Assembly: GCF_029674545.1 (NCBI RefSeq)
Contig: NZ_CP121354.1
Location: 4,721,001-4,785,000 of the forward strand
Length of the DNA stretch: 64,000 nucleotides
Source: Mesorhizobium sp. WSM4904
Lineage (GTDB): Bacteria > Pseudomonadota > Alphaproteobacteria > Rhizobiales > Rhizobiaceae
Direction of reading: 5' to 3'
Below, piece after piece: positions 28,768-32,963 of this stretch (its first letter is position 1; the number at the start of each line of letters is the position of its first letter). The notes under the pieces were generated by a model, which saw only the letters and a program-made list of their open reading frames with translations, had not been told where the DNA came from and searched no databases. Both the position numbers and the translations under genes were made by a program.

Positions 28768-29670
28768 ATGCGAAGTCTACGCCACCTCCTCCCTTCCGCC
28801 GGCAGCCTCGTCGTCTTCGAGGCGGCGGGCCGGCTGTCCAGCTTCACTGCGGCCGGGCGCGAGCTCGGCATGACGCAGGCGGCCGTCTCCTATGCGGTGC
28901 GCGGGCTGGAGGAACAGCTCGGCGCAAAGCTCTTCCAGCGCCGCCATCGCCAGGTGCTGCTGACGGAGGCCGGCGAGCGCTTCCACGCCGACGTCTCGCT
29001 CGGCCTGTCGCATATCCGCAAATCGGCCGAGGATCTTCGGATGCAGGCGACCGGCGGGCACGTGACTTTAGCCGCCTCGACTGCCTTCGGCTCGTTCTGG
29101 ATGATGCCGCGGCTGCAGCAGTTCCGCGACGAGCTGCCGGGCGTCGACCTGCGCATCCAGACCGCCGACCGCGACCTCGACATCATCGCCGAGGGCATTC
29201 CGCTCGGGGTGCGCGGAGGGATGCCCCGCGACTGGCCGGACTATCATTCCCTGTCGCTCTCCGACGAAGAGATTTTCCCGGTCGCCGGGCCTAGCTATCT
29301 CGCCAAATTCGGCATGCCGAAGACCGTCGCGGAACTGGCAACGCACAGGCTCATCCATCTCGAGGAGCCCTATCGCGAAGCCCCGAACTGGGACGAATGG
29401 TTCGCGTCCGCCGGAACCAGCCTGCGCAATGCCGAGCGCGGGTTGCGCATCAACGACTATGCGTTGGTGATCCAGGCGGTGATGGAGGGGCAAGGCATCT
29501 CGCTCGGCTGGCGGCATCTGGTCGAGCGGCTGGTGGCATCGGGCCTGCTCGTGCCGGTGACCGACCATGTGATGCGGACCGGCATCGGCTTCCACGTCAT
29601 CTGGCCGAAGAACCGCGAGCTCAGCGACAACGCACGCAAAGTGAGGGACTGGCTGGTGGCGCAGGCGTGA
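28768..29670 (+). CDS. LysR family transcriptional regulator (GcvA-like)
   Basis: 300 residues. N-terminal winged helix with LSSFTAAGRELGMTQAAVSY (about 24-43), then a periplasmic-binding-like effector domain. The overall sequence is of the GcvA subgroup (LRIQTADRDLDIIAEGIPLGVR). Divergent from the MttB homologue with 90 bases between, so it most likely regulates that gene and the solute-binding protein gene. The start codon has no clear ribosome-binding site. Confidence 0.9.
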   Translation: MRSLRHLLPSAGSLVVFEAAGRLSSFTAAGRELGMTQAAVSYAVRGLEEQLGAKLFQRRHRQVLLTEAGERFHADVSLGLSHIRKSAEDLRMQATGGHVTLAASTAFGSFWMMPRLQQFRDELPGVDLRIQTADRDLDIIAEGIPLGVRGGMPRDWPDYHSLSLSDEEIFPVAGPSYLAKFGMPKTVAELATHRLIHLEEPYREAPNWDEWFASAGTSLRNAERGLRINDYALVIQAVMEGQGISLGWRHLVERLVASGLLVPVTDHVMRTGIGFHVIWPKNRELSDNARKVRDWLVAQA

Positions 29671-29743
29671 AGGAACCGACATTGTTCGGGAATAGAATAG
29701 CGCCGACCGGCGACGTACAAAACGTCACCGGGAGACTAAAGCC

Positions 29744-31075
29744 TTACGCCCAAGGGATGTTCATATTGACCAGGTGAACGCCCTTTTTGACCAAAACTCG
29801 ATCTTTCTCCCACCAAACTGCGCTAATTGGACCGTCCTGCGACACCACCAAAATCCGACAATCATAATCTCGACTCGCTAGTTTTACTGCGGATCGGTGG
29901 CGCATGCCAAACTGCTCGATGTCACATCTCTTGTACTTCCGACGAAACTCGTCGTTAACTTCAAAAATATTTATATCCTGGCGTATTTCCGCTCTAATTT
30001 CTGCTCCAAATCCTAACAATCTCAAGTCGTCAGAGATTACGATAGATCCATCGCAACCAGACAAACCGGCAACAAATCGAGTTGCTTCCACCAACGATTC
30101 GTAGGAGTCCTTCATCTCGCCCACCGCTTTGTACAATGCTCCCTCGGGGACTAAATGACCGTCCTCATCCAACGACTCATAATCCCCGAGAACGTTTCTT
30201 CTATTCATAAAATCGATAAATGATGCCCTCAGCGTACCCGCATCTGTCTCGTACTTTATCTTAATAATTCCTGGGTCAATCTTCGTGTCACCCGCTTTGA
30301 TTATGAGCATTCCTCCATGGCCTGCTAAACTAATGGCATTTGCGATGGCCGCATAGGTATTCCACATCGCGATAAATTCGAAATCTCTGTACTCTCTCGG
30401 ATGCTCATATTCAGGATAGTCAATCTCTTCGCTCATTCTTCCTAAACCGGCGTTGGCTGGTTCATGAAGAAAGACATTATAATCCATGCGGCCAGTCTCA
30501 ATAACTCCGTCCGTAAGCGTAGCCACGAGGAAGCCACCTTGGTATACGCGCAAGCGTCCGGGGCGGTCGACCTGAACAAAGAGGCCACGCGGGTCTCGAT
30601 AACGGTACTCCAAGCCAGTGCGGGCTCGGTGCCAAGACGTACCAAGGTCAATCAACCCAGCGATCGACCACTCTTGCTCGTTCCAAAAGGCCAATATCGC
30701 TGATTTCTTCGAATCGGTGGCGGGAGCTAGGCGACGAAGTTCCCCAACGCTGAGAGGACGCGATGATGCAAACTCATACACAGGCCCCACCGGTGACGGT
30801 GTTTTCGTAGAATTTTCCGCAAGAGCAACAATGTTGAAGGATGGATATCGCGCCTCTTCTGGAGCGCTGGCCGTAAGATAGGAAACGTCCAATAACTGCT
30901 CGAGCAACTGTAGAGGGGGACATGGGGGAGTTACATAGTCTCCGCCGACCATGTGAGGCCACCGTTTAAACACGACATCCGCTAAATCCTTCGGGAACGC
31001 TGCCACGGAAATCTCCAATTTGTTGCACGAATGCTGCAACGGCGGCGAGCGCTGGTTGTCATTCGGCGAATCCAT
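29744..31075 (-). CDS. DAC (diadenylate cyclase) domain protein with N-terminal sensor-like domain
   Basis: 443 residues, AT-richer than its neighbours. The C-terminal third matches the DAC/DisA_N domain: CDGSIVISDD (about 339) for the DGA motif, GMRHRSAVKLAS (about 391) for the GTRHRAA motif, and RILVVSQDGPISAVWW for the closing strand. Known DAC domains make c-di-AMP from two ATP. The DGA alanine is Ser here. The N-terminal about 230 residues resemble the sensor domain (DACNV-type) known in front of some DAC domains in conflict-linked nucleotide systems; that match is from memory. ATG 31075 is used; ATG 31090 overlaps the mutL start on the other strand. Confidence 0.78.
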   Translation of the reverse strand: MDSPNDNQRSPPLQHSCNKLEISVAAFPKDLADVVFKRWPHMVGGDYVTPPCPPLQLLEQLLDVSYLTASAPEEARYPSFNIVALAENSTKTPSPVGPVYEFASSRPLSVGELRRLAPATDSKKSAILAFWNEQEWSIAGLIDLGTSWHRARTGLEYRYRDPRGLFVQVDRPGRLRVYQGGFLVATLTDGVIETGRMDYNVFLHEPANAGLGRMSEEIDYPEYEHPREYRDFEFIAMWNTYAAIANAISLAGHGGMLIIKAGDTKIDPGIIKIKYETDAGTLRASFIDFMNRRNVLGDYESLDEDGHLVPEGALYKAVGEMKDSYESLVEATRFVAGLSGCDGSIVISDDLRLLGFGAEIRAEIRQDINIFEVNDEFRRKYKRCDIEQFGMRHRSAVKLASRDYDCRILVVSQDGPISAVWWEKDRVLVKKGVHLVNMNIPWA

Positions 31076-31088
31076 GTAAGATAAAGCC

Positions 31089-32963
31089 ATGCCCATTCGC
31101 CAGCTTTCAGAAACAATGATCAACCAGATCGCCGCCGGCGAGGTGATCGAGCGCCCGGCGAGCGTGGTGAAGGAACTGGTCGAGAACGCGCTCGACGCCG
31201 ACGCGAGCAGGGTCGAGATCGTCACCGGCGGCGGCGGGCTTTCTCTCATCCGGGTCACCGACGACGGCTCGGGCATTCCCGAAAAGGAACTGTCATTGGC
31301 GGTCGCCCGGCATTGCACCTCGAAGCTCTCCAACGACATCCACGACATCCGTTCATTGGGTTTTCGCGGCGAGGCGCTGCCCTCGATCGGCTCGGTGGCC
31401 AGGCTTTCGATCCGCTCGCGCACGGCAAGCGGCGACGCCGCGGCCGAGATCGGCATCGACGGCGGCCGGGTTTCAGCCGTCAAGCCGGCGGCCGCAAACC
31501 GCGGCACGACCGTCGAGGTGCGCGACCTCTTCTTCGCCACGCCGGCACGGCTCAAATTCATGAAGGGCGAGCGCGCCGAAAGTTCGGCCATCAGCGATGT
31601 GGTGAGGCGGATCGCGATAGCCTTCCCGGCCGTGCGCTTCACCCTTGCCGGCTCCGACCGTTCGACGCTCGAATTGCCGGCGACCAGCGACACGCCGGAG
31701 GGCCGGCTTGCTCGCGTCGCGCAGGTGATGGGCAAGGATTTCCCCGACAATGCCATTGCCATCGATGCCATGCGCGACGGGGTGCATCTTGCCGGCCACG
31801 TCTCGATCCCTTCCTACACGCGAGCCAACGCGTTGCAGCAATATGCCTATGTCAACGGCAGGCCGGTGCGCGACAAGCTGATTGCCGGCGCGATCCGCGG
31901 CGCCTTCGCCGACGTCCTGCCGCGCGACCGGCATGCGGTCACGGTACTGTTCCTGACGCTCGATCCGGCGACCGTCGACGTCAACGTCCATCCGGCCAAG
32001 GCCGATGTGCGCTTCCGCGGCCCGGGCCTGGTGCGCGGGCTGATCGTCGGCGCCATCCGCGAGGCTTTGGCCGGCGCCGGCATCCGGGCGGCAACCACGG
32101 GCGCCGCCGGCATGATGGCGGCGTTCCGGCCGGGCGCGGCGCCATACGCGCATCCAGGCCCGACCAGCGGCCACCGCAGCTACGAGGCCGCCTACCATGC
32201 CTCAGGCTCCAGCGGTTTCGACCCCTCGCGCTCGCCGCACCGACCGCTCGATATGGGCCATGGCGGGGCGTGGCCGCCGCGAAACGGCTTCGCCGAGAAC
32301 GAGCAAGCCGCTTTCGACACCGGACCGCTTGCCAGCGCCGACGCGCGGGCGGGTACTGCCGAACCGACTGAGGCGTTGCTCGGCATGGCGCTGGGCGCGG
32401 CGCGGGCGCAGGTGCACGAGAACTACATCGTCGCCCAGACCAGGGATTCGCTCATCATCGTCGACCAGCATGCCGCGCATGAGCGGCTGGTCTACGAGGC
32501 GCTGAAGAACGCGCTGCATTCGCGCGCGGTGCCGTCACAGATGCTGCTCTTGCCTGAAATCGTCGACCTGCCCGAGGAGGACGCCGAGCGGCTGGCGATG
32601 CATTCTGAGACGCTCGCCAAATTTGGCCTCGGCCTTGAGCGCTTCGGCCCCGGCGCGGTGGCGGTGCGCGAGACGCCGTCGATGCTCGGCGAGACCAATG
32701 TGCAGCAATTGGTGCGCGACCTTGCCGACGAGATCGCCGACAACGATACGGTCGAGACGCTGAAGGAGCGGCTGGACAAAATCGCCGCGACCATGGCCTG
32801 TCACGGCTCGGTGCGCTCGGGCCGACTGCTCAAGGCCGAGGAGATGAACGCGCTGCTGCGCCAGATGGAGGCGACGCCTGGCTCCGGCACCTGCAACCAC
32901 GGCCGCCCGACCTATATCGAATTGAAGCTCGCTGACATCGAAAGGCTATTCGGGCGACGGTGA
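31089..32963 (+). CDS. mutL: DNA mismatch repair protein MutL
   Basis: 624 residues. N-terminal GHKL ATPase ([38 protein letters not shown]), a variable Gly/Pro/Ser-rich linker (about 335-425), and a C-terminal dimerisation domain. The endonuclease motif [12 protein letters not shown] and the closing CNHGRP metal motif are intact, so this is the nicking MutL type expected where MutH is absent. MPIRQL matches the usual N-terminus, yet no Shine-Dalgarno precedes it; TAAGAT at 31077-31082 suggests a leaderless mRNA. Confidence 0.97.

What the first reader, a model, noticed from the sequence alone, without database searches (positions are those of the whole stretch)
29744..31075. DAC-domain (c-di-AMP synthase-like) protein in an alphaproteobacterium
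The C-terminus shows CDGSIVISDD, GMRHRSAVK and VVSQDGPISA in the order of DAC/DisA_N catalytic motifs, behind a long sensor-like N-terminal region. c-di-AMP is mostly a Gram-positive and cyanobacterial signal and is not standard in Rhizobiales. The gene is AT-richer than its flanks, so likely acquired. DGA to DGS could alter activity. No obvious effector gene is adjacent, so this may be a stand-alone defence or signalling gene.
Basis: partly seen in the sequence, partly recalled or inferred. Interest (0 to 1): 0.75.

Follow-up and report, generated by a model that had tools for sequence, protein, structure and literature searches.

The report
Tandem diadenylate-cyclase-like gene in Mesorhizobium
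A Mesorhizobium genome carries a probably recently acquired single gene for a likely cyclic-dinucleotide-making enzyme in which a worn-out copy of the catalytic fold seems to sit in front of an apparently intact one, a rare and untested design.

Summary

The gene is probably a recent gain: a same-species genome has an empty site, 2 of 146 genus genomes carry it, both in one LysR|mutL slot, 61% identical. It is the genome's only DAC gene found.

Defence is possible, unproven: a GmrSD-HNH slot-mate, and relatives near CBASS, Shango and PD-Lambda-5-like genes; the other neighbours assigned look generic.

The parts
29744..31006 (-).
   Evidence: GGAG at 31016-31013
30491..30919 (-). N-terminal half (residues about 30-172): DACNV, by predicted structure a degenerate DAC fold without DGA/RHR/SEE residues
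29771..30400 (-). C-terminal catalytic DAC domain (residues about 203-412)
30302..30313 (-). GALI-motif equivalent GMLI (residues 232-235; Ala is commonest at 233 in the family)
   Evidence: motif definition in PMC7288161
30044..30052 (-). DGS in place of DGA (D319-G320-S321)
   Evidence: D and G 198/198; position 321 A 178, S 14, G 6
29894..29902 (-). RHR (369-371) of GMRHRSA
   Evidence: R369 196, H370 196, R371 197 of 198
29834..29842 (-). SQD (389-391) in place of SEE; D391 stands where CdaA Glu124 binds metal
   Evidence: S 195, Q 193, D 195 of 198
29671..31066 (.). extra stretch between the LysR stop codon and the CGAATCC box upstream of mutL; the same-species empty site has about 23 nt here
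31067..31088 (+). stretch before mutL that begins with CGAATCC, a box kept in empty and filled alleles (19 of 19 short intervals, 20 of 20 longer locus intervals, two genomes counted twice)
28768..29670 (+). LysR-type regulator gene, left border of the slot
   Evidence: Pfam LysR_substrate and HTH_1
31089..32963 (+). mutL, right border of the slot, divergent from the DACNV-DAC gene (82 nt between starts)
   Evidence: Pfam MutL_C and DNA_mis_repair

Best explanation
This is a tandem pseudo-DAC/DAC enzyme: a nucleotidyl cyclase that most likely joins two ATP into c-di-AMP or a close relative. The C-terminal DAC keeps the ATP site. The N-terminal DACNV half has the same fold by prediction but lacks the catalytic residues, and acts as a built-in regulatory or scaffolding partner that controls how two catalytic DAC domains meet face to face. 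Relatives fuse extra sensors (GAF, REC-PAS) in front of this two-domain core; the Mesorhizobium form is the bare core. It entered this strain as single-gene cargo in a variable LysR|mutL slot. Shown: predicted fold of both halves, conservation of the site, sporadic presence, empty site, slot. Inferred: activity, product, regulation by the first half, gain rather than loss. Unknown: trigger and target.
Confidence: 0.6

Rival explanations
1. Single-gene anti-phage module: phage infection switches on the cyclase; the nucleotide, or ATP loss, stops the cell, or acts on a host effector encoded elsewhere. In Herpetosiphon a CBASS-type phospholipase directly upstream on the same strand could be the effector.
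For: Sporadic, low-GC cargo with an empty site in the same species. Proteins 61% identical in one slot while flanking proteins are 95% identical. One of the four low-GC cargos over 1 kb in the slot is GmrSD_N+HNH. Herpetosiphon: CBASS phospholipase model 535 bits 38 nt upstream and a CBASS-type cyclase next door. Hymenobacter plasmid: SngA/B/C of Shango, SngC about 2.4 kb away. Rhodospirillaceae L037: a full-length PD-Lambda-5_A match (234 bits) one gene away, with a weak HEPN match between.
Against: PADLOC has no hit for the protein itself. In 103 neighbour ORFs of 14 loci no PADLOC family recurs, and the other matches assigned fit broad enzyme classes: kinase, primase-like, ABC ATPase, helicase, Pycsar-cyclase model. 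Several alphaproteobacterial relatives sit among genes that read as housekeeping. No relative in viral contigs or phages. The only match to the CBASS phospholipase model in the own genome is weak (23 bits). REC-PAS and GAF fusions point to ordinary signalling. The Herpetosiphon phospholipase may serve the CD-NTase instead.
Confidence: 0.35
2. Ordinary signalling enzyme: a horizontally spread environmental-response gene (osmotic, redox or nutrient) whose product acts on host proteins.
For: REC-PAS and GAF fusions in relatives. Stand-alone loci next to genes that read as housekeeping. Most large cargos of the slot are native-GC (10 of 14 over 1 kb). Glutathione peroxidase genes near four divergent relatives.
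Against: No match in the genome to one phosphodiesterase and one receptor family of c-di-AMP. Very patchy distribution within one genus (2 of 146).
Confidence: 0.3
3. The DAC domain is not an enzyme but a receptor that binds ATP or cyclic dinucleotides.
For: SEE replaced by SQD, Thr by Met, DGA by DGS; below Pfam cut-off.
Against: Asp, RHR, Ser and an acidic residue at the metal position are kept in nearly all 198 family proteins; no other DAC found in the genome to supply a ligand.
Confidence: 0.15

Closest known systems
DACNV-containing DAC proteins (Pfam PF21751; NCBI 'putative sensor domain DACNV-containing protein')
   Same: Same domain pair, similar length and motifs; named relatives in Mesorhizobium, Bradyrhizobium, Ruegeria, Sphingomonas and other phyla.
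   Different: Nothing fundamental: this is a member. What is added here is that DACNV itself looks like a degenerate DAC fold and that this copy is slot cargo. Pfam's label calls it a probable sensor.
CdaA (DacA) diadenylate cyclases
   Different: A second, degenerate DAC in place of CdaA's N-terminal transmembrane domain (abstract of PMC8573169 in the listing); 45 more residues between GALI and DGA and 18 more between DGA and RHR than in the Listeria CdaA numbering.
DisA
   Different: The DAC domain is at the C-terminus, with no DNA-binding part after it; NCBIfam DisA 10.7 bits vs cut-off 201.
CBASS
   Same: Works-like analogy only: cyclase plus possible effector; the Herpetosiphon relative lies inside a CBASS-type locus.
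   Different: No CD-NTase and no effector beside the window gene; a review states that DAC, SMODS and GGDEF domains share no structural similarity (PMC7288161, passages).

Membership tests
DACNV-DAC proteins (PF21751) | PF21751 above its curated cut-off | tested here: met
   56.8 vs 27 bits; own-genome scan 60.4 bits
DACNV-DAC proteins (PF21751) | DAC fold directly after DACNV | tested here: met
   by predicted model and conserved motifs
DAC (PF02457) | curated Pfam cut-off | tested here: not met
   21.6 vs 27 bits, partial; 22.9 bits in the genome scan
DAC (PF02457) | DAC fold | tested here: met
DAC (PF02457) | GxRHRxA motif | tested here: met
   GMRHRSA
DAC (PF02457) | DGA motif | tested here: inconclusive
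   DGS: Asp and Gly kept, Ala replaced by Ser
DAC (PF02457) | (V/I)SEE motif | tested here: not met
   VSQD; family-wide
DAC (PF02457) | diadenylate cyclase activity | not testable with these tools
   needs an assay
DisA | NCBIfam DisA equivalog cut-off and a C-terminal DNA-binding part | tested here: not met
   10.7 vs 201 bits; the DAC domain ends at about residue 412 of 420
CBASS | CD-NTase with adjacent effector | tested here: not met
   no PADLOC hit for the protein; the insert holds one gene
anti-phage defence gene | protection against phage | not testable with these tools
   no assay; context mixed

The most novel reading that the evidence does not exclude
A distinct class of diadenylate-cyclase-type enzymes built as a degenerate DAC fused to a catalytic DAC, with its own SQD metal-site signature, serves as the core of modular signalling proteins and, as the bare core, as a mobile single-gene immune or stress module in Proteobacteria that otherwise lack c-di-AMP.
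Probability: 0.25. Interest if true: 0.8.

Novelty: new variant of a known kind. Interest (0 to 1): 0.52.

Why it matters
A review names three classes of c-di-AMP enzymes, DisA, CdaA and CdaS (PMC7288161, passages). If confirmed, this gives another architecture with an internal pseudoenzyme half, explains what the DACNV 'sensor' domain is, and brings a c-di-AMP-type signal into alphaproteobacteria as mobile cargo. It yields direct tests: product, role of the dead half, and phage phenotype.

Tried and rejected
Sequence evidence for an internal duplication: hhalign of N-half against C-half gave probability 0.2% with 105 rows (reversed controls 0.7-0.9%, no worse than the real pair) and 0.5-0.6% with 87 more diverse rows (reversed controls 0.1%). 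The best stretch pairs about residues 129-158 with 371-400, the register the fold predicts, but it is not significant (P about 0.1; reversed 0.59-0.73). A PDB sequence search with the N-half profile gave no DAC. Foldseek on the N-half gave no significant match and no DAC in the 50 rows shown.

Defence island as a general rule: not found. 103 of the 179 neighbour ORFs listed, from 14 loci, were scanned; 71 PADLOC families matched at 1e-12, and the list, ordered by number of members, begins with families matched by one ORF each (25 shown). Assigned afterwards by rescanning 30 ORFs and by the first row: a Ser/Thr-kinase-like ORF in L045 (32 of the families), a primase-like ORF in L035 (RT_UG29), an ABC ATPase in L037 (mad3), a helicase in L049, a weak mad2 match in L037 (80 bits), a Pycsar-cyclase model in L035 (81 bits), and the one full-length specific match, PD-Lambda-5_A in L037 (234 bits). 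The MzaA match (2e-76) was not assigned.

Patatin partner as a general rule: rejected. The Hymenobacter patatin is fused to Omp85, so it is probably an outer-membrane protein; the Herpetosiphon one matches the CBASS model. The eight other genomes searched of that family lack the gene.

Mobile-element borders: no tRNA in the window; no direct repeat links the two ends of the insert; inverted repeats near the ends are short. Glutathione peroxidase linkage was noted but not pursued; in two of the four cases (L043, L044) a gene on the other strand lies between.

Literature: 'DACNV' in 0 papers; DACNG/DACNH/DACNK/DACND give one unrelated paper; degenerate, tandem or pseudo-DAC give one unrelated paper. 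Searches on diadenylate cyclase with Proteobacteria, anti-phage, patatin, SMODS or CBASS terms (listings only, capped) showed no paper that I recognised as being about DACNV. Of three papers I saw more: PMC7288161 (passages; section 2.3 in full), PMC12657218 (12 passages), PMC7159879 (one passage). The 2015 comparative-genomics paper that I recall as a likely source of such domain names is not held, so an earlier description there cannot be excluded.

Full report
CHECK OF THE OBSERVATION. The minus-strand ORF and its three motifs are present. The open frame runs further upstream (675 aa), overlapping mutL on the other strand. The start that fits best is GTG 31006: GGAG lies 6 nt upstream, the close relatives P0002 and P0003 begin at the matching residue, and 62 of the 120 listed proteins are 415-427 aa. 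GC is about 0.50 in the gene and 0.61-0.70 on both sides. Pfam DACNV scores 56.8 bits (cut-off 27), Pfam DAC 21.6 (cut-off 27) over a short stretch. The DAC scan of the whole genome finds only this gene, again below the cut-off (22.9 bits; the control rang in 11 of 14 well-known genomes).

ACTIVE SITE. In PMC7288161 (section 2.3 read in full) the CdaA site is made of the GALI, DGA, GxRHRxA and SEE motifs, with side chains L31, D71, T102, R103, H104, S122 and E124 (metal) and main chain of L88, G101 and E123. By order and spacing the counterparts here are L234, D319, M368, R369, H370, S389, Q390 and D391. Among 198 proteins of 370-560 aa, out of 208 listed by the two searches and with this one included, D319 is kept in 198, R369 in 196, H370 in 196, R371 in 197, S389 in 195, Q390 in 193 and D391 in 195; position 321 is A in 178, S in 14, G in 6. 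Such conservation argues for an enzyme. The Asp for Glu at the metal position and the Met for Thr could shift metal preference or product. Some divergent members have RHL, RHA or RHI.

RELATIVES. 433 proteins were found with the window protein and 493 with the Herpetosiphon one, 120 listed each time. In GTDB species genomes the alignment found 17 loci, by record title in eight phyla, none in viral contigs; tblastn found none in phages and one plasmid. Density is low, the carriers used as centre included: 2 of 385 genomes of the class, 1 of 301 of the Herpetosiphon phylum, 1 of 61 relatives, 2 of 146 genomes of the genus. The second of these is Mesorhizobium sp. M1B.F.Ca.ET.045.04.1.1 (L034 and G485 have the same coordinates), which places the host in Mesorhizobium. 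In the tree of 32 rows the window protein groups with the two named Mesorhizobium proteins (98/95) inside an alphaproteobacterial clade (100/100). Three Magnetococcales proteins put GAF, or REC plus PAS, in front of DACNV and the DAC motifs (PF02457 was reported for two of the three, below cut-off). So DACNV behaves as part of the core rather than as the interchangeable sensor.

THE SLOT. I measured the LysR-mutL interval in 37 Mesorhizobium genomes: 36 of the 41 plus M1B. For three no LysR was found in the fetched stretch and two were not fetched (recount). Nineteen are 43-167 nt, four are 256-369 nt, fourteen exceed 1 kb. The same-species genome G061 (97% identical mutL DNA) has 45 nt. Four large cargos have low GC: the window gene (0.50), the M1B relative (0.47), a GmrSD_N+HNH gene (0.49) and an ORF without Pfam or PADLOC match (0.51). 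The other ten are 0.60-0.64. In M1B the flanking LysR, MttB-like and MutL (first 300 residues) proteins are 95% identical to those of the window, the DAC protein 61%. Both DAC-carrying alleles share CGAATCCATGTANGNTAAAGCC before mutL; CGAATCC itself is there in every measured interval. This fits exchange by recombination in the flanks; no direct repeat links the insert's ends. The rarity and low GC favour gain; loss in the sister genome is not strictly excluded.

NEIGHBOURS ELSEWHERE. Herpetosiphon giganteus (L040): a phospholipase matching the PADLOC CBASS effector at 535 bits lies 38 nt upstream on the same strand, and a CBASS-type oligonucleotide cyclase follows on the other strand. Hymenobacter monticola plasmid: SngC, SngB and SngA of Shango begin about 2.4 kb beyond the gene across the record start. 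Rhodospirillaceae L037: downstream come a weak HEPN match (24.9 bits, below cut-off) and, on the other strand, a full-length PD-Lambda-5_A match (234 bits). L039 has an integrase directly upstream. Several other alphaproteobacterial loci lie among genes that read as housekeeping (names read from sequence). A PADLOC survey of 103 neighbour ORFs showed no recurring family, and the other matches that I assigned fit broad enzyme classes; one (MzaA) stays unassigned. So a defence role is possible for some members and not shown for the window gene.

HOST PATHWAY. The own genome has no match to the PgpH transmembrane family or the DarA-type receptor (controls rang in 4 and 3 of 14) and a weak match to the CBASS phospholipase model (23 bits). 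GdpP and DHH-type phosphodiesterases and riboswitches were not searched.

VERDICT. A member of a named family for which the papers I could search gave no description. New here, as far as those searches go: the degenerate-DAC identity of DACNV, the sensor fusions, the empty site and variable slot, and the defence-gene contexts of some relatives. Activity, product and purpose remain to be tested.

Noticed in passing
window 29671-31088: The LysR|mutL interval is a variable slot across Mesorhizobium: 14 of 37 measured genomes hold over 1 kb there, with differing cargo, including a GmrSD_N+HNH gene (L054:7268-8659).
   Followed up: partly
L043:12730, L044:12655, L046:2704, L052:6774-7385: Glutathione peroxidase genes lie close to four divergent DACNV-DAC genes (directly upstream in L046); possible redox link or chance.
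   Followed up: partly
L094:6928-8727, L095:7277-9334, L097:7081-9171: One Magnetococcales genome carries three DACNV-DAC proteins with GAF or REC-PAS sensors in front; a REC-GGDEF gene (L050:7328-8260) is next to one of them.
   Followed up: partly
L037:11448-15468: Downstream of a Rhodospirillaceae DACNV-DAC gene: a HEPN-like ORF, a PD-Lambda-5_A-like gene without Pfam match, and an ABC ATPase gene; possible defence cluster.
   Followed up: partly
window 31022-31040: Short inverted repeat GTTGCA-7-TGCAAC between the divergent starts of the DACNV-DAC gene and mutL; possible operator, or chance.
   Followed up: no
L072:5047-5919: 291-aa ORF with hydrophobic N-terminal segments and no Pfam or PADLOC match, the main ORF in the same slot in another congener, GC 0.51.
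   Followed up: no
L034, right end of the slot: The M1B allele has a tandem duplication of a stretch of roughly 57 nt just upstream of mutL.
   Followed up: no
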